Source: Pantanalinema sp.
GTDB taxonomy: Bacteria > Cyanobacteriota > Sericytochromatia > S15B-MN24 > UBA4093
Assembly: GCA_036704125.1 (NCBI GenBank)
Contig: DATNQI010000012.1
Coordinates: 1 to 38,412, forward strand
Length of the DNA: 38,412 bases
Reading direction: 5' to 3'
Part shown: positions 22,438 to 36,823 of the stretch, piece after piece
Layout of the letters: the number at the start of each line of letters is the position of its first letter
Numbering within the stretch: the first letter of the stretch is position 1
Program-made: the position numbers and the translations under genes
The notes under the pieces: model-generated
Told to the model about the DNA's origin: nothing
Database searches by the model: none
What the model saw: the letters and a program-made list of their open reading frames with translations, nothing else

Positions 22438-22857
22438 CTAATTGTCTTTATTTTTAAATATTTTAGATACTAAGTCTAGTGATTTTGATTCTTCAAATGA
22501 TATGTAGCCAGATTTAAATAAATCTCCAGTCATAAGTTTTCTGACAGGTTCCCAGTTTTTGTTCAAATATTTCGCCAGGTTATTTACATTTTTTGAGTCA
22601 TCTGTTTCTGGGATGTACGATGAATCGACAAACTCAAGTATGTAGTCAAGATTATGCCATTCATTTTCTGATTTTCCGATTTCTACAAAAATCTGTCCCC
22701 TGTCTTTGATTATTCTCAAATTGAATTCCGGAGAATTTAGCAAAATAAGCGAGTTCCCGAACAATTTTGTATCAACGGAAGATTCTTTGATACTGAAGTT
22801 TCTTTCTTTGGCGATTAATAAAAATTCCGGAGCAATAGATTCGATTAAAGAAGACAT
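22438..22857 (-). CDS. Putative immunity protein of the intact YD toxin
   Basis: The 139-residue acidic cytoplasmic protein begins two bases after the YD stop codon (TAA-TT-ATG), with GAGAGGG overlapping the end of the toxin gene as ribosome-binding site. It has alternating helices and strands: SIAPEFLLIAKERNFSIKES, LFGNSLILLNSPEFNLRII, DRGQIFVEIGKSENEWHNLD, YILEFVDSS, and a Lys/Asn-rich helical tail. No family is named. Its DNA is strikingly AT-rich (many AAA, ATT, TTT codons) compared with all core genes, so it was almost certainly acquired with the toxin tip. Location and composition make immunity to the tip the best hypothesis. Confidence 0.7.
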   Translation of the reverse strand: MSSLIESIAPEFLLIAKERNFSIKESSVDTKLFGNSLILLNSPEFNLRIIKDRGQIFVEIGKSENEWHNLDYILEFVDSSYIPETDDSKNVNNLAKYLNKNWEPVRKLMTGDLFKSGYISFEESKSLDLVSKIFKNKDN

Positions 22858-22859
22858 AA

Positions 22860-25800
22860 TTAATTCCCTCTCACCAAGCGAGATCCGTCTGCATTAGGCT
22901 TATATCCCTTTCCAGAAAGATATTCCAACTCTCTGGCGAAATAGGATCCTGGTTTTACCTTATTTAGTGGAGTTGCGAGAAGAATGTCATCTCCTCTTGA
23001 AATCATTCGATCGAGGAACTTTTGGTTTGCTGTCCATTGCTCTGCCTTTGACATCCTATTCCATACATCTGCAGGAATTTCGAATGCGCGAGCACCGATG
23101 TTTTCAGCAAGCTCCATATATTCTGGATAATGGCCTAGAACTGTCTTACCTGCCTGAGAGGCGGCTGACTTGAGTGCGCTAAAGCCAAATCGTTCGGCAA
23201 CTTGCGAACCAACTGCTGCAACACCTGCTCCGGCTGCTTCAAATACTGAGCCAGGGGTTAGGGCTAATGCCGTACTCAGCAAGGATTCATCGTCTTGGAC
23301 AAGCGAACTCAATGCAAGTCCAACATTGCCTGCGGCTCGTTCCACCAAATTTCCACTAAGCGACTTTTGAGCCCAGTAATCTTGGGCCCGATGGGCGTAC
23401 TCCTCCCCAGCATAGGCGACCTTATTGCCATGCTTCTCCCACATCTTGCGTTCGGTGATCAGCGCCTCATTCTGTTGGTAGCTATTGGCAAACTGACCCG
23501 CTATCTTGGCATAGCCAAGGTACTCATTTGTCTTGTCCAAGCCAGGGATCTCGACGCCGAAAGAATTCGAGATGGTGGAAAGGCCGCCCGTAACTGCTGA
23601 CAAAGAGTTTGCCGTATCGAAGCTAACGAGCGAGGTCAGGTTGCCGACGTTGAGTGCCCCCAAGCCCCCAGCCCCGCTTGCAACGGAGCTGATGGCATTG
23701 TAGACGTTGACGCCCTTTTCGACCCACTCAAGCGCCCCGCCCAACTGAGGGCTGATCGAGCTGGCAGCATCCTTTACGATTCCCGTCGCAAGGCTCACGC
23801 CTTGCCCAACGATGTAGTTCGTCGCTGCGGACTGGGCAATAGACAACAGCGCTGGTGCTGCGGCGGGGAAGAGCGCGCTGGCTCCAATCACGGCAACCAC
23901 CCCAGCTCCGACAGCCAGCGCTTTCCAAGGATCGGACTTCACCGCATCGATAGCGCCACCGACCATGCTGCTCACGCCGTTGAGCGCCCCGCCAATGCGT
24001 TCGGTCACCTTATCGAAGAAGTTGTTGCTTGACTGAGGCTTCCACTCCGCCTGGAACCCCCAGGCGTCGATGAGGGTCGCCGGGTTGTTGTTCACGTAAG
24101 CGTAGCGGTGCAGGCTCATGGGATCCGCTGGGGTGCCGCGGTAACTATCCTGATTCATGAACCGACCGGTCGCCGGGTCGTACCAGCGGCTGCCGAAGTA
24201 GTAGAGCCCTGCTTCGGTGTCGTACGACTTGGCGGTCAATAGCTGCGTGTTGTACGGGTCCAGAAGACCCGCCTGCGGCGTACCGAAGACGTCCTGCCGG
24301 TAGCGAAGGATCCGGCTGCCCTGGTGATCGGTCATACCGGTCACGCTGCCGAGGGCGTCGTGCAGGTAGTAGAGGTGGTTGCCCTTGGTCTGGAGCTTGA
24401 AGGCCTGATCCAGCCGGCCGTGGTTGCCGAACATGCGGCGGGTGACGGCCTCGCCGTTCCCAGAGTAGTACTCCGCAAGTGGCGCCCCGGTCTCCGTGAA
24501 CTCGCCCAGCAGCGTGTTTCCGGCGTAGGAGTAGCGGGTGCTCAGCTGCCGCTGGGGTTGCTCGACGTCTGGGCGATCGCCCTGGATCAGGCGCCCCATG
24601 GGGTCGTAGGTGTACTTGAGCTGGCCGCCGTCCGCATAGCGCACGCCCGCGAGCTGGTTCAGGGCATCGTACTGGTAGCGGACCGAGCTGCCTTCCGTCG
24701 TTTCGGCCACCCGGTTGCCGTTCCCATCGTACTCGTAGGTGGTTTCCCCGACGCGCTTGAGCTGGTTGGCGTCGTCGTACGAATAGGCGAGCGTACCCGT
24801 CTGAGTGGTTTCCGTCAGGCGGTTCCCGACCTGGTCGTAGGTGTAGCGGACCGAGCTGACCGGATCGAACCAGTAGGCAGGCGCCTCTACGTTCGTCTGG
24901 TTCTTGCCGTTCGAGGAGCCACGCTTCGCGTTCTTGCTCTTGGCCTTGCCGAGCTTCTCCTTTTGGGGCTTGCCGTGCTCGCCCTTGTCCTTGTCGGCCT
25001 GCTTGCCGTTGCCATTCCCTTGGCCATTGCCAGAGTTGCCATTCCCCTGGCCATTGCCAGAGTTGCCATTCCCCTGGCCATTACCAGAGTTGCCATTCCC
25101 CTGGCCATTACCAGAGTTCCCGTTGCCAGGGTTATTGTCGTCTGGCTTCCCGTTGCCGTTTCCATTTCCGGACGAGTCTTGCCCGTTACTATTGCCGTTC
25201 CCGTTGCCGGATGAACTCTGGCCGTTGCCATTGCCGTTACCGTTGCCTTGGCCGGAATTGCCGTTGGCGGCGATTGAGCGCACGGACAGGATGGTGAACT
25301 TGCTGCTTCCGAGCCCCGAGTCCTTGATGGAGAGGAGCTTAGGGCCCTTCTCCTTCTCGTCTTCAGCGCTCGAGGCCTGCTGGCCGTTCCCCTTCGCGCC
25401 GTTGCCCTGCTGGGCCGAGGCCAGGGTGAAGTCCCGGTCCGCCAGGATCGCCTGGACGGGGTAGGTGACATCTTCTAGCCGGGAAAGGGCGTCGTAGCGG
25501 TACTGGGTCAAAGAGCCGTCGAGCTCTCTGGTCTGGGTGCGGTTGCCGACGCGGTCGTACTCGTAGGCGAAGCCCTGGAGCCCTTGACCACCGCGCCCGT
25601 AGTGGGTAAGCGACTTGGTCTGGTTGGCAGGATCGTAGACGTAGGCGCTTCGGTTCCCGGAAGGGTACTCCATTCCGGTGAGGCGCCCACCACGGTCGTA
25701 CTGGTACGACGTTCGATTCCCCTCGGGATCGATCATCGCGCGCATCTGGTTCAGATCGTCGTAGTCGTAGCGAACCGTGCGGCCCTGCGGGGTCGTGAGG

Positions 25801-28800
25801 GCCGTCATGCGATCCACGGCGTCGTAGGCGAAGCGCGTCGTCTTGGCCCAGGTGACGTTGCTCTCTTCCGTGAGGCGGTCGAGATCGTCGAAGCGGCGCT
25901 GGACGTTCGCATGACGGTTCTGGTAGCCCGTCATGTTCCCCACCTCGTCGTAAGTGAACGAGGCGAGGTCGTCGGGAGTCTGGACTTTCGAGACCCGGCC
26001 CAGCTTGTCGTACTGGTAATCGGTCCAGGCGCCGTTACCGTCACGCTTCTTGTCGAGATTGCCGACCGAGTCGTAGACGTACTGGCTCATCCGCTGGAGC
26101 GGATCGCGCTCCCAGTCGAGACGGTTCAGCTCGTCGTAGTGGAAGGCCCACTGCTTTCCGCGGGCGTCCTGTAGGGCCGTCATGTTCCCGATGGGATCGT
26201 ACTGGTAGCGGGTCTGGTTCCCCAGGGCGTCCGTGACCCGTGTCAGGCGGCTGAGCTCGTCGTAGGCGTACTGGGTGCTCTGGCCCTGCGCATCCGTCTT
26301 GCGCGTGAGGCGGTCCAGGCGATCGTAGAAGAAGTCCGTCGAGTAGCCGTTGCCGTTCATGCGACGGATCGGGCGGCCCATCTTGTCGTAATTGACGCTC
26401 ACCTGGTTGCCGTTGGCGTCACGTACGAGCGTGACTTGAGCCAAGGCGTTGTAGCGATACTCGGTCGTGCGTCCCAGAGGCTCGTAGACGAAGCGCAGGC
26501 GATCCGCTGCGTCGTACGCGTTACGCGTGGTCACCCCCAGGGCATTGGTGACGCGATCCAGGTTGCCCATCCGGTCGTACGCAAGCTGGGTGGTCTTGCC
26601 CATGGGTTGCGAGACGGCCGTGACCCGGTTCAGGGCATCGTACTGGTAGCGGGTGGTTCGGTTCTTGGCATCGATCGAGGCCGTCAGGTTCCCGAACGCG
26701 TCGTACTGCATCCGGGTCCGGCCTTGGAGGGCGTCGATGACCTCCTCGGGGAGGTTGAGGTCGTTGTAGGAGATGGTCGTCGTCGCGCCGTCCGCCAGGC
26801 GTCGCGTGCTCGTCATGTTGCCGAGCTCGTCGTAGGCGAAGAGGGTCGCGCGCAGCAGCGGGTCCGTGACCTTGGTCAGGCGGTTGTTGGCGTCGTAGGC
26901 ATAGGTGGTCGAGCGACCATTGGCATCCGTGCGCCTGAGGAGATTGCCTGCCGGGTCGTACTGGAACTCCATGCGCTGTTGCAAGGGAGCATTGACCCGG
27001 ACCGGGCGGCCCAACCGATCGTAGAAGATGGATGTCGCCTGGCCGTTGGCATCGGTGATCGACGTCATGCGACCGGCAGGGTCGTAGCCGTAGGAGGTCT
27101 TCGCTCCCTTCGAGAGTTCCGAAACCTCGCTGAGGCGGTTGAGTGAGTCGTAGACGTAGTCTGTCTCGGCCCCACTCGGCGAGATCTTCTCGAGCAGGTT
27201 GCCGGCGTTGTCGTAGCGTAGCTGGGTGACCCGCCCCTCGGGGGCGGAGATGCGCGAGACGCGCCCTGCGGCATCGTAGGAATAGTCCGTGACGCCGCCG
27301 TTGACCTTACGGATGCTCTTCAACTCGCCGCTCGGCCAGTAGTCGAACTCGGTCGGGTTGCCGAGCGCATCGACCACCGTCTTGATGCGGCCCAGGGCAT
27401 CCTGCTGGAAGCTCTGGCGGCGGCCGTCGGGGGCCGTGATCTCGGTGAGGCGCCCGAGCGCATCGTACGCGTAGCGGGTGGTCTTGCGCGTGTCGGTGAC
27501 CGTGAGGATCTGGCCCGCGGCGTTGTAGGTGAATTGCTGGGTCTGGCCCTTGGGGCGCTCGATCTGCAGCAGGGTGCCGTCGGCGCCATAGCGGTAGTGG
27601 GTCGGTCCTTCGGGTGCGGGAGGGACGACGTCCGTGATCTGCCCGACGGCGTTGACCACGAACTGGGTGGAGAACTGCCGGGGATTGGTGATGCGCTTGA
27701 TGGCCCCGATCCAGTGGTACTCGATGGCGCTGGCCTGCCCTTCGGGGTCGGTCACCAGCGAGACACGATTCAGCGGGTCGTAGGCGTAGCGGGTGATCTC
27801 GCCCAGTTCGTTGGCCATCTGGGTGACGTTGCCCGCCGCGTCGTAGGTGAAGGCCTTGGCGCGCTGGGTCGGATCGACGATCCGGGTCACCCGGCCGTTT
27901 CCGTCTCGCTCGAACTGCGTGAGGTGGCCGTTACCGTCGGTGACCTTCCAGAGTTGCCCGAGCGAATTGTAGGAATAGCGCGTCTCAGCCCCGGCGTTGT
28001 CGCGGGTGTAGACCAGCTGGTTCTTCTTGTCGTAGCCCATCTGCGTGACGCGGCCGCCCGGGGCGGTGATCCGGGTGACGTTGCCATTGGCGTCCGCCTC
28101 GAACAGGGTGATTTGTCCGAGCTGATCGGTGTAGGTATGCAGGTGGCCCCGGGCGTCGTACTCGTAGCGGCGCGTCCCGGTGGGATCGGTCACGCCGGTG
28201 ACCTGTCCCAGCGCGTCGTAGGCGTAGGTCGTCCAGCCGCCGATGGGGGTGTCGACGTGCGTGAGCAGGCCAAAGGCGTTGTGCTCGGTCGTCGTCCGGT
28301 GCTGGCCCGGGTCCACGACCGCCTGGGTCTGGCCGTGGTCGTCCACGGTGTAGGCGACCGTGCGCCCGGCTGGGTCGCGGATGCTCCTGACGTTCCCCTG
28401 AGCATCCAGCGTGATGGTGGTGACGCCGCTCGGGTCCTTGACCTCGTAGGGCTGGGAGAACTGGGGATCGTACTTGATGGTGGTTTCCTGGCCCGAGGCG
28501 TCCACCTTGCGGGTCATGTTGCCACGGTCGTCGTACCCGTAGGTCAGCACGATCTGGCGATCGCCCCGGCTGAAGCTCTCCCTGACCTTGCGGTGATTCT
28601 CGTACGCGTAGTCGAAGACCGTCCCGCTGGGGTCCTTCTGGCGGACGATGTCCCCGTTGTTGATGTCATACTCCGTCCGGAAGGTTCGGCCATCCACCTC
28701 GTGGGCCGTCTGGACGGTCTTGCCGGGGGAGTAGACGAACTCCGTGCGGCCTCCCTCGGGGTCGGTCGCCTGGATGACCTTGCCCTGAGCGTCGTAGGCG

Positions 28801-31169
28801 AAGCGCCACATCTGCTCGGGATCGCGATCGCTGTGCCCGGTCATCATGTGGCCCGCGTAGGTGTACACCTGGTGGGCCGAGCCCGGGTGGATCACCTCGA
28901 CGAGGTTGTCGCCCTCGTAGCGATAGGAAAAGGTACGACCGGCCGGATCAACCATGGTGGCGATCCGATCCCCCTGGTAGGTGAACCGGAGGTGCCGGCT
29001 GGACGGATCGGTGACTTGTGTGAGCTTGCCGCTGGTGTATGCCAGCTCGAAGCGGTTGCCGTTGCGGTCCGCGAAGCCCTGCAGGCGGCCGGCATCAATG
29101 GGCTGGGTCGTGCCGAACGGCTCGATCCCCGGCTCGTAGAAGAACTTGCGCTCCGTCGCGATCCGCTTGAGGCCGCCGGAGAAGTCGAAGGTGGCTCCTT
29201 CCTTGTCACGGACCTGGTACGAACCGTCCGCGAGCTGGCTGAGGCTCAGGCCCGTGCCAGGAGGCGCACGGTAGCCGTTGCCGGCTGGCATGAAGATGGT
29301 GCTCTGACCGTGATCGTTGTAGTAGGCGATCGCGTTGTCCGGGAAGCGGAAGAGGTACTGGTTGTAGGTGTGGGTCCAGCCGTGGCCGAGGGGCATGAAG
29401 CCGCGGTTAGAGTCGTCCGGCTTGAAACTGCTGTTGTAGGAGCGCAGGAAGTCCGTGCGCATCCCGCGGCCCTTGAGCTGCAGGTCGTAGTGGTCGTGAT
29501 AGTTGGCCCCTGAGACCACGTCGACCGGATCGACCTGGAAGGTCGAGGAGAAGAGGGCGGGCGGCTTGGTGGTGGCGTTTGGCTCGCTCGAGGGATTGGT
29601 TGGGTCGTTCGAGGTCGTGAAGGTGTTCTTGATGATCCCCTGCTCGACGCCGTCCGCGTAGACGTCGAGCACGAGCTGCTTGGCGAGTTCAGCGCTTTCG
29701 CCGCCAGCGTTGACGGCCTGGATCACCTGCTCCAATACCGTTTCGGGTAACTGCAGGAGGCCAGCCTTGAGGTTCGCGGCTTCTTTCGGATCCTTCGGCT
29801 TTAGGCCGGTAACGGCTCCGGTCGTCTGCTGATCTTTCCAGATATTTGCGCGATCGGCATCGATCGCCTTGGCGATATCCGAATCGCTGCGATCGTAGGC
29901 CGCAAAGGCGCCAACGCAGGCGTAGTCCGCGATCGGGTCGTGCTCGTCCGGATTGACGGCGGCGTCCGCTCCGCTCAGAAAGCCGATGCCAGCCTCACCG
30001 TGTTGATCGGGCGCATAGGGCCGATAAAATTTCAGCTTGGAGAACTTGGGCTCCCCCCGCAAGCCGGCGAACGGCGTGGAGAACGCAATCGTGGCACCCC
30101 CGAAATCTGTCAGGGGGTAGTCCGAAGGCCCGTGAAACGCCCCCGTGGGAAAGGGCTGCACTTCGACCCAGAAGCCATTGATCCTTGTAGGGCGGCCTCG
30201 GCGGAAACTGTTGTCAGGGAGCTTGGCGACTTCTTCTCGCAGCTTGTTGACGAGATGGGGGTTGGTTTCCCAGTAATAAATCGATTCCTTTCGCTTGATG
30301 ATGGAATCGAAAGCATAGGTTTTTATGTGGTTCAACGATGATTCATAGTTTGAAAAAGCCCAATAAGGATGCTGCTTCAGAGTCAGCTTGATGCCGCTGT
30401 AGAACCACTTCGGCCAGCCAAAGTTCCCGTAGCCCGATCCGGTGAAGCTGTCGCCGCTGTGCCAGTCCTTCCATTCGTTTTTGTAGCCTGAGAACCAGCC
30501 CTTATCGGCCTGCTCGATGAAGATCGAGCGACGATCGCGGTTCTCTCCCAGGAGGCGCGGATATTGTCCGTTGGAATCGTTCAGGAAATCTGCGACGAAT
30601 AAGCGAAACCCACTCGATTCCTCGTGTTCGCTGAAGTACGAGTTGTGATATTCGACGTCCTTCGGATCCCTGCCATCGTCGTTAACAAGCGGCAAGGTCA
30701 ACGTGTGCGGCGAGCGTTGGGCAGGTGCCTTTCCCTTTGTTTTCCAGCCAAAGGTCGTGACATATTCATACTCGTTGTTGCCATCACGCGGAGGCGTGCC
30801 GTCGGGCTCGAAGAAGGTCGTCCCCGATCTGAAGACGAAATTGCTCGTGGTTTTGTCGACGGCTTGATGCTCATAGTTGTGATGCGCCCTTGCCAGGGGC
30901 GTGGTGGCGGGGCTCAACCTGGCCCACTTCGTCAGTACGTCTTGCAGCCCTGCCGTCAGGTGCCACAGTTGATGCTTGAATTCGCCCAGCGGGCCAGGCA
31001 GGTTCAGCCTGTCCAGCCGGGAGTGGAGGATCATGCCGTAGTCGGGTGACGGGCTCGGGACGAAGGGAAGGGATGCAGGTCCTTCGGCTCTTGGCGGCAG
31101 GCTGTAGAGGACCATCAGCATGGCCAGGGTCGCCGAAATGAGGCGCGTGCCCGGCATCGAACGGCGCAT
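22860..31169 (-). CDS. Giant YD-repeat (Rhs-like) polymorphic toxin, intact
   Basis: The 2769-residue protein has a Sec signal peptide (about 1-29). An unrecognised amino region runs to about 545, then a DUF6531-like segment (VDVVSGANYHDHYDLQLKG, about 550-630), then a long shell of YD repeats (motifs such as YRYDALNRLTKVTD) from about 700 to 2330. A Gly/Asn/Ser/Gln low-complexity insert interrupts the shell at about 1940-2090. The Rhs core end is DPATGRFMNQDSYRG with YVNNNPATLIDAWG (about 2330-2372); the usual last DPxG is DAWG. A hydrophobic/helical region follows, then a 93-residue tip (2677-2769) with GHYPEYMELAENIGARAFEI, PADVWNRMSKAEQWTANQKF and LDRMISRGDDILLATPLNKV, a recurring toxin-tip type whose activity I cannot name. 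The tip's DNA is far less GC-rich than the shell. The secretin gene is 13 bp upstream. Confidence 0.92.
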   Translation of the reverse strand: MRRSMPGTRLISATLAMLMVLYSLPPRAEGPASLPFVPSPSPDYGMILHSRLDRLNLPGPLGEFKHQLWHLTAGLQDVLTKWARLSPATTPLARAHHNYEHQAVDKTTSNFVFRSGTTFFEPDGTPPRDGNNEYEYVTTFGWKTKGKAPAQRSPHTLTLPLVNDDGRDPKDVEYHNSYFSEHEESSGFRLFVADFLNDSNGQYPRLLGENRDRRSIFIEQADKGWFSGYKNEWKDWHSGDSFTGSGYGNFGWPKWFYSGIKLTLKQHPYWAFSNYESSLNHIKTYAFDSIIKRKESIYYWETNPHLVNKLREEVAKLPDNSFRRGRPTRINGFWVEVQPFPTGAFHGPSDYPLTDFGGATIAFSTPFAGLRGEPKFSKLKFYRPYAPDQHGEAGIGFLSGADAAVNPDEHDPIADYACVGAFAAYDRSDSDIAKAIDADRANIWKDQQTTGAVTGLKPKDPKEAANLKAGLLQLPETVLEQVIQAVNAGGESAELAKQLVLDVYADGVEQGIIKNTFTTSNDPTNPSSEPNATTKPPALFSSTFQVDPVDVVSGANYHDHYDLQLKGRGMRTDFLRSYNSSFKPDDSNRGFMPLGHGWTHTYNQYLFRFPDNAIAYYNDHGQSTIFMPAGNGYRAPPGTGLSLSQLADGSYQVRDKEGATFDFSGGLKRIATERKFFYEPGIEPFGTTQPIDAGRLQGFADRNGNRFELAYTSGKLTQVTDPSSRHLRFTYQGDRIATMVDPAGRTFSYRYEGDNLVEVIHPGSAHQVYTYAGHMMTGHSDRDPEQMWRFAYDAQGKVIQATDPEGGRTEFVYSPGKTVQTAHEVDGRTFRTEYDINNGDIVRQKDPSGTVFDYAYENHRKVRESFSRGDRQIVLTYGYDDRGNMTRKVDASGQETTIKYDPQFSQPYEVKDPSGVTTITLDAQGNVRSIRDPAGRTVAYTVDDHGQTQAVVDPGQHRTTTEHNAFGLLTHVDTPIGGWTTYAYDALGQVTGVTDPTGTRRYEYDARGHLHTYTDQLGQITLFEADANGNVTRITAPGGRVTQMGYDKKNQLVYTRDNAGAETRYSYNSLGQLWKVTDGNGHLTQFERDGNGRVTRIVDPTQRAKAFTYDAAGNVTQMANELGEITRYAYDPLNRVSLVTDPEGQASAIEYHWIGAIKRITNPRQFSTQFVVNAVGQITDVVPPAPEGPTHYRYGADGTLLQIERPKGQTQQFTYNAAGQILTVTDTRKTTRYAYDALGRLTEITAPDGRRQSFQQDALGRIKTVVDALGNPTEFDYWPSGELKSIRKVNGGVTDYSYDAAGRVSRISAPEGRVTQLRYDNAGNLLEKISPSGAETDYVYDSLNRLSEVSELSKGAKTSYGYDPAGRMTSITDANGQATSIFYDRLGRPVRVNAPLQQRMEFQYDPAGNLLRRTDANGRSTTYAYDANNRLTKVTDPLLRATLFAYDELGNMTSTRRLADGATTTISYNDLNLPEEVIDALQGRTRMQYDAFGNLTASIDAKNRTTRYQYDALNRVTAVSQPMGKTTQLAYDRMGNLDRVTNALGVTTRNAYDAADRLRFVYEPLGRTTEYRYNALAQVTLVRDANGNQVSVNYDKMGRPIRRMNGNGYSTDFFYDRLDRLTRKTDAQGQSTQYAYDELSRLTRVTDALGNQTRYQYDPIGNMTALQDARGKQWAFHYDELNRLDWERDPLQRMSQYVYDSVGNLDKKRDGNGAWTDYQYDKLGRVSKVQTPDDLASFTYDEVGNMTGYQNRHANVQRRFDDLDRLTEESNVTWAKTTRFAYDAVDRMTALTTPQGRTVRYDYDDLNQMRAMIDPEGNRTSYQYDRGGRLTGMEYPSGNRSAYVYDPANQTKSLTHYGRGGQGLQGFAYEYDRVGNRTQTRELDGSLTQYRYDALSRLEDVTYPVQAILADRDFTLASAQQGNGAKGNGQQASSAEDEKEKGPKLLSIKDSGLGSSKFTILSVRSIAANGNSGQGNGNGNGNGQSSSGNGNGNSNGQDSSGNGNGNGKPDDNNPGNGNSGNGQGNGNSGNGQGNGNSGNGQGNGNSGNGQGNGNGKQADKDKGEHGKPQKEKLGKAKSKNAKRGSSNGKNQTNVEAPAYWFDPVSSVRYTYDQVGNRLTETTQTGTLAYSYDDANQLKRVGETTYEYDGNGNRVAETTEGSSVRYQYDALNQLAGVRYADGGQLKYTYDPMGRLIQGDRPDVEQPQRQLSTRYSYAGNTLLGEFTETGAPLAEYYSGNGEAVTRRMFGNHGRLDQAFKLQTKGNHLYYLHDALGSVTGMTDHQGSRILRYRQDVFGTPQAGLLDPYNTQLLTAKSYDTEAGLYYFGSRWYDPATGRFMNQDSYRGTPADPMSLHRYAYVNNNPATLIDAWGFQAEWKPQSSNNFFDKVTERIGGALNGVSSMVGGAIDAVKSDPWKALAVGAGVVAVIGASALFPAAAPALLSIAQSAATNYIVGQGVSLATGIVKDAASSISPQLGGALEWVEKGVNVYNAISSVASGAGGLGALNVGNLTSLVSFDTANSLSAVTGGLSTISNSFGVEIPGLDKTNEYLGYAKIAGQFANSYQQNEALITERKMWEKHGNKVAYAGEEYAHRAQDYWAQKSLSGNLVERAAGNVGLALSSLVQDDESLLSTALALTPGSVFEAAGAGVAAVGSQVAERFGFSALKSAASQAGKTVLGHYPEYMELAENIGARAFEIPADVWNRMSKAEQWTANQKFLDRMISRGDDILLATPLNKVKPGSYFARELEYLSGKGYKPNADGSRLVRGN
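22863..23141 (-). other. Exchangeable toxin tip of the YD protein
   Basis: These codons encode residues 2677-2769, which follow a remembered pattern GHYPEY...GAR.F.IP...W..MS..EQW.ANQKFLDR...RGD.I.LATP...V.PGSYF..EL.YL..KGY. It is the domain expected to be released or delivered. Base composition drops sharply here compared with the YD shell. Confidence 0.6.
25021..25128 (-). repeat. Four tandem 27-bp units coding the 9-residue repeat GQGNGNSGN
   Basis: Copies start at 25021, 25048, 25075 and 25102, nearly identical, the last one diverging. They lie in the Gly/Asn-rich insert of the YD protein (wider low-complexity region about 25003-25262). Length change by slippage in multiples of nine residues would keep the frame. 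Confidence 0.85.
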
Positions 31170-33716: not shown

Positions 33717-35003
33717 CTATCTGAACAGGCTCACGATCCCGTCGACGATGGCGCCGCCCGCCGCGCTGACCTGGTCTGCGATCTCGTCGGCGCCCTTGCC
33801 GATGAGCTTGATGCCGTTGGAGAAGTTGGAGGCCACGATCCGGGGCAGGTCCTCGATCCCCGGCTCTTCCTCCGAGGTCGCGGTGGTCTTGGCGCCGGTG
33901 ATGGCGCGGATCCCCTTCGAGAGGGTGTTGATCAAGAGGCCCGGGATGGGCAGGATGGGGGATCCGACCGCCTGGATGATGCCCTTGGGCAGGTTTCCGA
34001 GCCCCACCGTGACGCTGGCCCCGGCCCCGCCGCCGACGCCCGCAGCCGCCTTGGCCCCGGCGCCCAGCGTGATGGCCCCGTCCCTGACGACGAGCGTGCC
34101 GTCGAGACCGGCCCCGACCCCGGCGAGCGCCTCGGCCGAGCCGCTCGCGCCCACCTGGATGAGCCCGAGGATCGAGGCGAAGCCCTTGGCCTGGGTCCTG
34201 CCCCAGGCGCCCGAGACGGCCTCGGCCGCGGCGCCGATCCCGAAGGAGGGCAGCCCGAACTGGTCGATCCCCACGTGGACCCGGCTCTGGGCCTTGGTCC
34301 TGGTCCCGGTGACGGCCTCGGTTTCGAGGGCGGCCCCCACGAGCTTCGCGTCCTTGACGGCGAGCTCGCCCGCGACTTCGCCGCGGACCCGGGCGTAGGC
34401 CTCGGCGACGGCCCCGGCCTGGGCGTCGAAGGAGGTGGGGGTGGCGACCAGCGACGCGGCCCCTTCGGCGCGGGCCCTGAGCTCGGCGTCCACGCTCACC
34501 GAGCCGGTGGCCGTGGCGCTAGGACCGAGCTGGGCCTGGCCCACGGCGGCCGCGCGGATGCGGGCGGCCGCCTCGGCCAGAAGGGCGCCCTGGGCTGCGA
34601 CCAGCTGAGGGGCGATCACCACCATGCCGTCGGCCGAGGCCTGGGCGACGCCCTCGGCCTCGATCCCGCCGGCGCCGCGCAGGGTGAGCGCGCCGATGGA
34701 GGCCTCGAGCGCGGCCTGCGCGCTGTAGCGGGCGGCGGCGGCGGCCTCGGCCTGGACGCGCGCGCCCGAGAGCGCTGGGGTGTCCACCACCTTCAGGGTG
34801 GCCTGCGCGCGGGCCGCCCCGTCGAAGCGGTAGGAGTCGCCTTCGCGGTGCGCGCGGGCCTCGTGCTGGACGGTGCGGGTCTCGACGGCAGGCCCGGTCG
34901 GGACCCCCCCGGCGGCCGTCGCGAGCGCATGCAGCCGCCGGAGGCGCTCCGCGTGAGCGGCGCCTCCGGCGGGGTGATGCATGCCAGCCTGTAATCCGCT
35001 CAT
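33717..35003 (-). CDS. Ala/Gly-rich protein of unknown function
   Basis: The 428-residue protein has no signal peptide. It is very rich in Ala, with heptad-free, repetitive segments: AEAAAAARYSAQAALEASIG, LLAEAAARIRAAAVGQAQLG, EGAASLVATPTSFDAQAGAV and AYARVRGEVAGELAVKDAKL, likely long amphipathic helices or strands. A Gly-rich middle (AGVGAGLDGTLVVRDGAITL) is followed by KGIIQAVGSPILPIPGLLIN and a helical end. The carboxy part, with AGASVTVGLGNLPKG and IVDGIVSLFR, could sit at a membrane. No family was recognised. ATG 35003 has GAGGAG five bases upstream. Its antisense strand is densely open, as expected for this composition, but the start site, length and stop at the kinase 3' end favour this frame. 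Confidence 0.7.
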   Translation of the reverse strand: MSGLQAGMHHPAGGAAHAERLRRLHALATAAGGVPTGPAVETRTVQHEARAHREGDSYRFDGAARAQATLKVVDTPALSGARVQAEAAAAARYSAQAALEASIGALTLRGAGGIEAEGVAQASADGMVVIAPQLVAAQGALLAEAAARIRAAAVGQAQLGPSATATGSVSVDAELRARAEGAASLVATPTSFDAQAGAVAEAYARVRGEVAGELAVKDAKLVGAALETEAVTGTRTKAQSRVHVGIDQFGLPSFGIGAAAEAVSGAWGRTQAKGFASILGLIQVGASGSAEALAGVGAGLDGTLVVRDGAITLGAGAKAAAGVGGGAGASVTVGLGNLPKGIIQAVGSPILPIPGLLINTLSKGIRAITGAKTTATSEEEPGIEDLPRIVASNFSNGIKLIGKGADEIADQVSAAGGAIVDGIVSLFR

Positions 35004-36205: not shown

Positions 36206-36248
36206 AAAGAAGGAGGGCGCCCCGTCGATCGGGGCGCCCTCCTTCTTT
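36206..36248. terminator. Perfect 19-bp bidirectional terminator
   Basis: A 19-bp perfect stem (36206-36224 with 36230-36248), loop TCGAT, ends in T-rich CTTCTTTG on one side and TTCTTTTCG on the other strand. It lies between the convergent genes ending at 36201 and 36260 and can serve both. Confidence 0.9.
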
Positions 36249-36259
36249 GCTCGAAAGTC

Positions 36260-36823
36260 CTAGTACTTCGGGACGACCACGAAGCGGCTGGCCTTGAGGC
36301 TGAAGTTGAGGTAGTAGGTCGTGACCGCGCCGTCGGGACGAACGGCGGTCATCTCCTTGGTCTTGACGTTCCAGCGGACCACGTTGGACTGGTAGCCCTT
36401 GGCGAAGCTGGTGGTGTCGAAGTAGAACTCGAGCTCGCCGCGCTTGCCGGCGGCCAGGTCGGTGGCCTGCTGGAGGTACTGGGCGGCCGAGGTGACCTTG
36501 GGGGTGAACTCGTGGCCGTGCTTGAGGAAGTGGGTCTCGAGGTTCTGCTCGGCGCTCAGGTTGGCCGCGGGGCGCGAGGCGAAGGTGCCGTTGGGAACCG
36601 TGTTGCGGCTCTTGGAGATGATCTCCAGCTGCGCATCGGTCAGCTTCACGCCGAGGTCGGCGACGGCCTTGACGAACTCTGCCTTGGTCTTGGGCGCAAC
36701 GGCGAGCGCTTTGGTCGTCTGCGAGTTGGACGAGCCGACGATGCCGGTGCCGGAGAGACCGCAGCCGCTCAGCGACAGGAGCATCGTGGTCAGGGCGATC
36801 GCGGAGAACAGCTGCTTCTTCAT
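36260..36823 (-). CDS. Lipoprotein with a polymorphic-toxin nuclease-like (BECR-type) domain
   Basis: The 187-residue protein has a lipoprotein signal (MKKQLFSAIALTTMLLSLSG, lipobox Cys about 21). It then has a Ser/Thr-rich linker and a helix (about 40-85). The C-terminal 85 residues run LETHFLKHGHEFTPKVTSAA, YLQQATDLAAG, LEFYFDTTSFAKGYQSNVVR, WNVKTKEMTAVRPDGAVTTY and YLNF. This is close to the remembered toxin pattern HxxKHGxEF..EYlxxA...YDxxtNeFavvxxdGxirTyFkP, a BECR-fold RNase type seen at tips of contact-dependent toxins. Whether the nuclease is active or domesticated is unknown. ATG 36823 follows GAGG; TTG 36835 is less likely. No immunity gene is adjacent. Confidence 0.75.
   Translation of the reverse strand: MKKQLFSAIALTTMLLSLSGCGLSGTGIVGSSNSQTTKALAVAPKTKAEFVKAVADLGVKLTDAQLEIISKSRNTVPNGTFASRPAANLSAEQNLETHFLKHGHEFTPKVTSAAQYLQQATDLAAGKRGELEFYFDTTSFAKGYQSNVVRWNVKTKEMTAVRPDGAVTTYYLNFSLKASRFVVVPKY

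What the first reader, a model, noticed from the sequence alone, without database searches (positions are those of the whole stretch)
36260..36823. Lipoprotein carrying a BECR-type toxin nuclease-like domain, without immunity gene
The C-terminal region has FLKHGHEF, a YLQQA helix, a two-strand repeat WNVKTKEM / TAVRPDGAVTTYY and ends LNF, as in RNase tips of contact-dependent toxins, but is attached to a lipoprotein signal. Either a solitary secreted RNase anchored to a membrane or a domesticated nuclease fold would be unusual. No cognate immunity gene is adjacent.
Basis: partly seen in the sequence, partly recalled or inferred. Interest (0 to 1): 0.65.

Follow-up and report, generated by a model that had tools for sequence, protein, structure and literature searches.

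The report
Lipoprotein built on a toxin-nuclease fold
A non-photosynthetic relative of cyanobacteria makes a small membrane-anchored lipoprotein whose main domain is, by predicted structure and by sequence, a cousin of the RNA-cutting tips of bacterial warfare toxins, kept with its likely active-site residues across its class but with no antidote gene beside it.

Summary
The gene is real: window 36260-36823 (-), 187 aa, lipobox LSGC, monocistronic. Its host class is Sericytochromatia. AlphaFold gives a confident helix plus four-strand meander, with H98/K101/H102/E105 in the helix and T169 in strand 4. The best solved match is the CDI toxin 8EY4, then colicin D, and a second model built on a 27%-identical homologue agrees. 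Independent profile comparison with polymorphic-toxin tips scores 44-60, against a shuffle maximum of 25, and a toxin-only profile finds one of these lipoproteins and nothing else in 18 genomes. Seven genomes from six families keep all key residues. Paralogous lipoprotein groups in the same class have lost most of them. No immunity gene is conserved beside the seven copies. Best reading: a vertically inherited, envelope-anchored BECR RNase that needs no immunity because it is exported; catalysis is inferred, not shown. It is not a polymorphic-toxin system. Lipoprotein-toxin fusions have precedents (SitA; Amoebophilus APD1/2), so this is a new variant of a known kind.

The parts
36260..36823 (-). 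BECR-fold lipoprotein gene, 187 aa plus stop
   Evidence: orthologues in G001, G002, G005, G010, G015, G017
36761..36823 (-). Type II signal peptide with lipobox L-S-G-C (residues 1-21); glycine at +2
   Evidence: sequence; C21 invariant in A3
36569..36691 (-). N-terminal helical hairpin, residues 45-85, specific to the lipoproteins and absent from the toxin tips
   Evidence: model helices 47-56 and 63-72; alignments A1 and A3
36275..36562 (-). BECR domain, residues 88-183
   Evidence: VIA-align range to 8ey4_A, Z 8.5; hhalign to toxin tips
36509..36553 (-). Active-site helix, residues 91-105, with N94, H98, K101, H102, E105 (H98 codon 36530-36532, H102 codon 36518-36520)
36317..36319 (-). T169 in strand 4, the position of the conserved S/T of BECR RNases
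   Evidence: strand 167-172; invariant in group A; aligned to the toxin T of G-x3-T
36206..36248 (.). 19-bp inverted repeat with 5-base loop between the two convergent genes, likely bidirectional terminator; makes the gene monocistronic
   Evidence: read directly from the sequence

Best explanation
The protein is an envelope-anchored ribonuclease. It is made with a lipoprotein signal, crosses the inner membrane through Sec, is lipidated at C21, and a short linker and helical hairpin hold a BECR-fold RNase domain in the periplasm or on the cell surface. There H98, K101/H102, E105 and T169 would cut RNA without metal, as in colicin D and CDI toxins. Because it folds outside the cytosol it needs no immunity partner. 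Its role is probably housekeeping, such as degrading external or incoming RNA, and not kin-specific killing. Shown here: gene, homology, predicted fold, residue conservation, vertical-type phylogeny, lack of a shared neighbour. Inferred: lipidation, location, catalysis, biological role.
For: Predicted fold with pLDDT above 90 over most of residues 50-180 and helix-plus-four-strand-meander topology. Best solved matches are 8EY4 (prob 1.00, Z 8.5) and colicin D (Z 6.0-7.0), unrelated rows 2.6 or less. A model of the 27%-identical homologue gives 8EY4 Z 9.9, rmsd 2.1 over 86 of 88 residues, colicin D about 6-7, colicin E5 about 3. The sequence profile hits 8EY4 first among PDB chains, E 0.006. 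hhalign to toxin tips prob 94-97, far above shuffles. The reciprocal toxin-only profile finds only a lipoprotein of this family in 18 genomes, E 3.3e-4. H98, K101, H102 and T169 are invariant in seven genomes despite synonymous codon change. Six of the seven group A proteins form one supported branch whose inner order broadly follows kinship. No conserved immunity neighbour.
Against: No activity data. Paralogues of the same lipoprotein family persist without most of the catalytic residues, so the shared function may not need catalysis; Y116, D136 and G165 are invariant across A1 even where H98/K101/H102 are lost, and the toxins lack the D136 equivalent. Foldseek E-values alone are modest, 1e-2 to 3e-3. 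In the second AlphaFold job only one of five models was confident. dN/dS of about 0.4 shows only moderate constraint.
Confidence: 0.55

Rival explanations
1. Domesticated, non-catalytic BECR fold: the domain is a binding module (RNA, nucleotide or protein) in the envelope, and the H/K/H/T set is kept in group A for binding or folding.
For: Paralogous groups in the same class keep the lipoprotein architecture and the Y116, D136 and G165 positions (in most) while losing H98, K101, H102 and T169.
Against: In group A exactly the residues shared with killing toxins are invariant, across about 40-75% amino-acid divergence.
Confidence: 0.25
2. SitA-like lipoprotein toxin delivered to other cells by contact or membrane exchange, with an immunity protein encoded elsewhere.
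For: SitA toxins of myxobacteria are outer-membrane lipoproteins with nuclease tips, one a CdiA-type tRNase (PMC5562445). The tip here is a CDI-toxin homologue. An RHS toxin cassette lies 5 kb away on the same contig.
Against: No linked immunity gene in seven loci. SitA toxins are polymorphic with a cognate SitI and occur only in TraAB-bearing species; here the same domain is inherited and not swapped.
Confidence: 0.1
3. The BECR resemblance is convergent: a small helix-plus-sheet lipoprotein of another family with a chance His-rich helix.
For: No curated family recognises it; individual Foldseek E-values are modest.
Against: Fold, sequence profile, residue pattern in order and spacing, and reciprocal profile search all point to the same toxin family.
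Confidence: 0.04

Closest known systems
8EY4-type CDI/polymorphic toxin tip (E. coli O32:H37 PT-VENN toxin; relatives at the C-termini of CdiA, FHA and RHS proteins)
   Same: Fold (Z 8.5 and 9.9) and ordered motif N-x3-H-[FW]-x-K-H-x2-[ED]-F ... Y ... G-x3-T.
   Different: Not the tip of a giant secreted protein; carried on a 187-aa lipoprotein with an extra helical hairpin and YFD segment; no linked immunity gene.
Colicin D tRNase domain
   Same: BECR fold, Z 6.0-7.0; H-x2-[ED] and [ST] pattern listed for Tox-Colicin D in PMC3482391.
   Different: About 11-16% identity; colicin D is released with an immunity protein; residue-by-residue register with K607/K608/H611 not established here.
SitA lipoprotein toxins (Myxococcus)
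   Same: Lipobox plus C-terminal nuclease domain of CDI-toxin type (PMC5562445).
   Different: SitA tips are polymorphic, have SitI immunity and use TraAB exchange; none of that was seen here (TraAB not searched).
PBECR domains of phage MuF/polyvalent proteins (PMC5512222)
   Same: His in N-terminal helix plus C-terminal S/T; viral contig L024 carries a MuF-fused relative, not named by Pfam, with HFLKHGHEF and KTYF.
   Different: Phage virion context, no lipoprotein signal.
APD1/APD2 lipobox effectors of Amoebophilus (PMC3482391)
   Same: Surface-anchored lipoproteins carrying effector domains.
   Different: Shared N-terminus with polymorphic C-termini; here a single inherited domain.

Membership tests
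BECR fold RNases | N-terminal helix followed by a four-strand meander, often a fifth strand (PMC3482391) | tested here: met
   H91-105, H113-124, E131-136, E148-152, E157-161, E167-172, E181-183; second model agrees
[quoted passage not shown]
   H98 and H102 in helix 91-105, T169 in strand 167-172, invariant in group A
BECR fold RNases | Structural similarity to solved members above background | tested here: met
   8EY4 Z 8.5, colicin D 6.0-7.0, next unrelated 2.6; 9.9 and 6.0-6.9 for the homologue
BECR fold RNases | Metal-independent endoribonuclease activity | not testable with these tools
   needs an assay
8EY4-type polymorphic toxin system | Homologous toxin domain | tested here: met
8EY4-type polymorphic toxin system | Toxin domain at the C-terminus of a large secreted delivery protein | tested here: not met
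   187-aa lipoprotein
8EY4-type polymorphic toxin system | Immunity gene directly downstream | tested here: not met
   no shared small neighbour in seven loci; the one tight downstream ORF (G017) has its only relative unlinked in G015
SitA lipoprotein toxins | Lipobox with nuclease C-terminal domain | tested here: met
   by sequence and predicted fold only
SitA lipoprotein toxins | Cognate sitI gene | tested here: not met
SitA lipoprotein toxins | TraAB outer-membrane exchange in the host | not tested
   not searched
Ntox35 (PF15534) | Residue pattern H, KH plus C-terminal S/T (PMC3482391) | tested here: met
   H98, K101-H102, T169
Ntox35 (PF15534) | Match to the family model | tested here: inconclusive
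   no hit in hmmscan or in 59 genomes, but the control genomes were also silent

The most novel reading that the evidence does not exclude
A class-wide family of envelope lipoproteins in Sericytochromatia was founded by capture of an interbacterial-toxin RNase domain. One branch remains an active RNase fixed in the cell's own envelope without immunity (for example an RNA-scavenging or anti-phage barrier enzyme), while sister branches lost catalysis and became binding or structural proteins.
Probability: 0.35. Interest if true: 0.6.

Novelty: new variant of a known kind. Interest (0 to 1): 0.47.

Why it matters
It would be a clear case of a warfare RNase fold turned into a resident, vertically inherited envelope protein, with live-looking and dead-looking versions side by side in one class. 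That gives a test bed for how toxin domains are domesticated and for whether bacteria keep RNases fixed in their own envelope. No curated family covers it, so these proteins are likely to be annotated only as hypothetical lipoproteins.

Tried and rejected
Family libraries Pfam, NCBIfam, PHROGs: nothing above threshold for the window protein; PADLOC PDC-M03B at E 0.005 is weak and was not pursued. Weak PDB-sequence hits to EF-hand proteins and calmodulin come from the helical hairpin and vanish with the group A profile. Phage and plasmid collections hold no direct relative of the window domain. The hit G128/L059 lies in no recognisable gene, and L060/G358 and G239 were taken as chance matches. 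Structural alignment gives only ranges, so which of H98 or H102 matches colicin D H611 is left open. The toxin copies on E. coli and Salmonella plasmids were deliberately not fetched; soil and plant-associated ones (Burkholderia pyrrocinia, Streptomyces, Rhizobium) were used.

Full report
What is there. The window carries a 187-aa gene at 36260-36823 on the minus strand, with an ATG start, a ribosome-site-like TGAGG upstream and a type II signal peptide ending LSGC. A 19-bp inverted repeat separates it from a convergent alpha/beta-hydrolase gene (PF00561). On its other side lie divergent genes, a short ORF without a family match and a LytR-CpsA-Psr gene. It is therefore a single-gene unit. The related genomes in the nucleotide collection are labelled Sericytochromatia (or cyanobacterium MAGs), a class of non-photosynthetic Cyanobacteriota.

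Relatives. No Pfam, NCBIfam or PHROG model recognises the protein. A genome search found homologues in 12 of 59 genomes, all in the same class, and a profile search of 386 genomes of the phylum found convincing matches only in that class. Seven proteins, the window's and those of G001, G002, G005, G010, G015 and G017, form group A at 27-61% identity to the window's. They come from five families besides none shared twice except f1 and f7, and six of the seven form one supported branch (97/91) whose inner order broadly follows kinship; the most distant, G017's, is unplaced. Further lipoproteins in the same class, often several per genome and some with proline-rich linkers, align over the mature part but have lost most or all of H98, K101, H102 and T169.

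Fold. AlphaFold2 on the seven-sequence alignment gives mean pLDDT 82.5, with 119 residues at 90 or more and low confidence only in the signal and linker. The order of elements is two small helices, helix 91-105, helix 113-124, strands 131-136, 148-152, 157-161, 167-172 and 181-183. This is the BECR arrangement as defined by Zhang et al. 2012 (PMC3482391). Foldseek against the PDB ranks the CDI toxin 8EY4 first (prob 1.00, TM 0.74 by target length) and colicin D next (prob 0.75-0.95), then drops to prob 0.13 or less in the rows shown. VIA-align gives Z 8.5 to 8EY4, 6.0-7.0 to colicin D, 4.9 and 4.3 to two more CDI toxins, and 2.6 or less for everything else. A second model, led by the 27%-identical homologue from G017, gives the same elements, 8EY4 at Z 9.9 and rmsd 2.1 over 86 of 88 residues, colicin D at 6.0-6.9 and colicin E5 at about 3. 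Both models use the same seven sequences, so they are not fully independent, and in the second job only one of five models was confident.

Sequence evidence independent of the model. The group A profile searched against all PDB chain sequences puts 8EY4 first, E 0.006. 8EY4 relatives sit at the ends of CdiA, filamentous-haemagglutinin and RHS proteins on plasmids. Three from soil or plant bacteria were used. Aligned, they share N94, H98, aromatic 99, K101, H102, E105, F106, Y116, G165 and T169 in order and, between H98 and F106, in spacing (in one search the T column of the toxins is lost in the long alignment). Profile-profile comparison gives prob 94 with three toxins and 97 when the MuF-phage relative is added; the real scores of 44 and 60 compare with maxima of 18.6 and 24.7 in 200 column shuffles. 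A toxin-only profile run over the 18 class genomes returns one match, the group A gene of G002, at E 3.3e-4.

Active site. [quoted passage not shown] PMC3482391). Here H98 and H102 lie in helix 91-105 and T169 in strand 4. H98, K101, H102 and T169 are four of the 15 invariant columns of the domain alignment and show synonymous codon changes, which fits retention by selection. H102-x-x-E/D105 matches the Hxx[ED] motif given for the colicin D clade; which histidine is the equivalent of colicin D H611 was not resolved.

Immunity and context. No small gene is shared next to the seven group A genes. The only cross-matches among neighbours are a regulator-like gene near G001 and G015 and one long protein (neighbours listed). 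The one ORF tightly downstream, in G017, has its only relative on a different contig of G015. The window does hold a classical RHS toxin with a low-GC companion gene 5 kb away, but it has a different tip.

Interpretation. That the domain is a BECR-fold homologue of CDI-type RNase toxins is well supported (I put it at about 0.95). That the window's protein is an active, envelope-anchored RNase is the best inference (0.55): an exported enzyme that reaches its active form outside the cytosol needs no immunity protein, and its inherited, non-polymorphic distribution argues against kin-discrimination killing. The main doubt is that related lipoproteins persist without the active site, so the shared role of the family may be binding. 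Lipoprotein-toxin fusions are known (SitA, PMC5562445; Amoebophilus APD1/APD2, PMC3482391), so the architecture is a new variant and not a new kind. A literature search for lipoprotein with BECR returned no report of this family among the listed papers.

Correction to the family count: the seven group A genomes are labelled f1 (window, G001), f2 (G002), f3 (G005), f5 (G010) and f7 (G015, G017), that is five families; where the summary says six, read five.

Noticed in passing
window 22438-31169 (-): A 2769-aa RHS-repeat protein (34 RHS repeats, DUF6531) followed directly by a 139-aa ORF of about 31% GC; together with the GC dip to 0.39 this looks like a polymorphic toxin with a recently acquired tip and immunity cassette. 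The tip has no family or PDB match.
   Followed up: partly
window 33717-35003 (-): 428-aa alanine-rich, low-complexity protein in a stretch of 78% GC, with no family match.
   Followed up: no
L064, L065, L066, L069 (also L067): A further branch of the lipoprotein family with long proline-rich linkers that lacks the catalytic set; function unknown.
   Followed up: partly
L036 11765-12310 (G002:C231): Second group A-like copy in G002 split between reading frames: pseudogene or assembly error.
   Followed up: no
L024 1363-2670: Viral contig with a Phage_Mu_F head protein ending in an HFLKHGHEF...KTYF domain, a relative of the 8EY4-type toxin tips that Pfam does not name.
   Followed up: partly
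L077 1171-1600: Pantoea soli plasmid carries a toxin-tip cassette of the same family interrupted by stop codons.
   Followed up: no
window 36455-36694: PADLOC candidate model PDC-M03B matches residues 44-123 weakly (E 0.005), spanning the helical hairpin and active-site helix.
   Followed up: no
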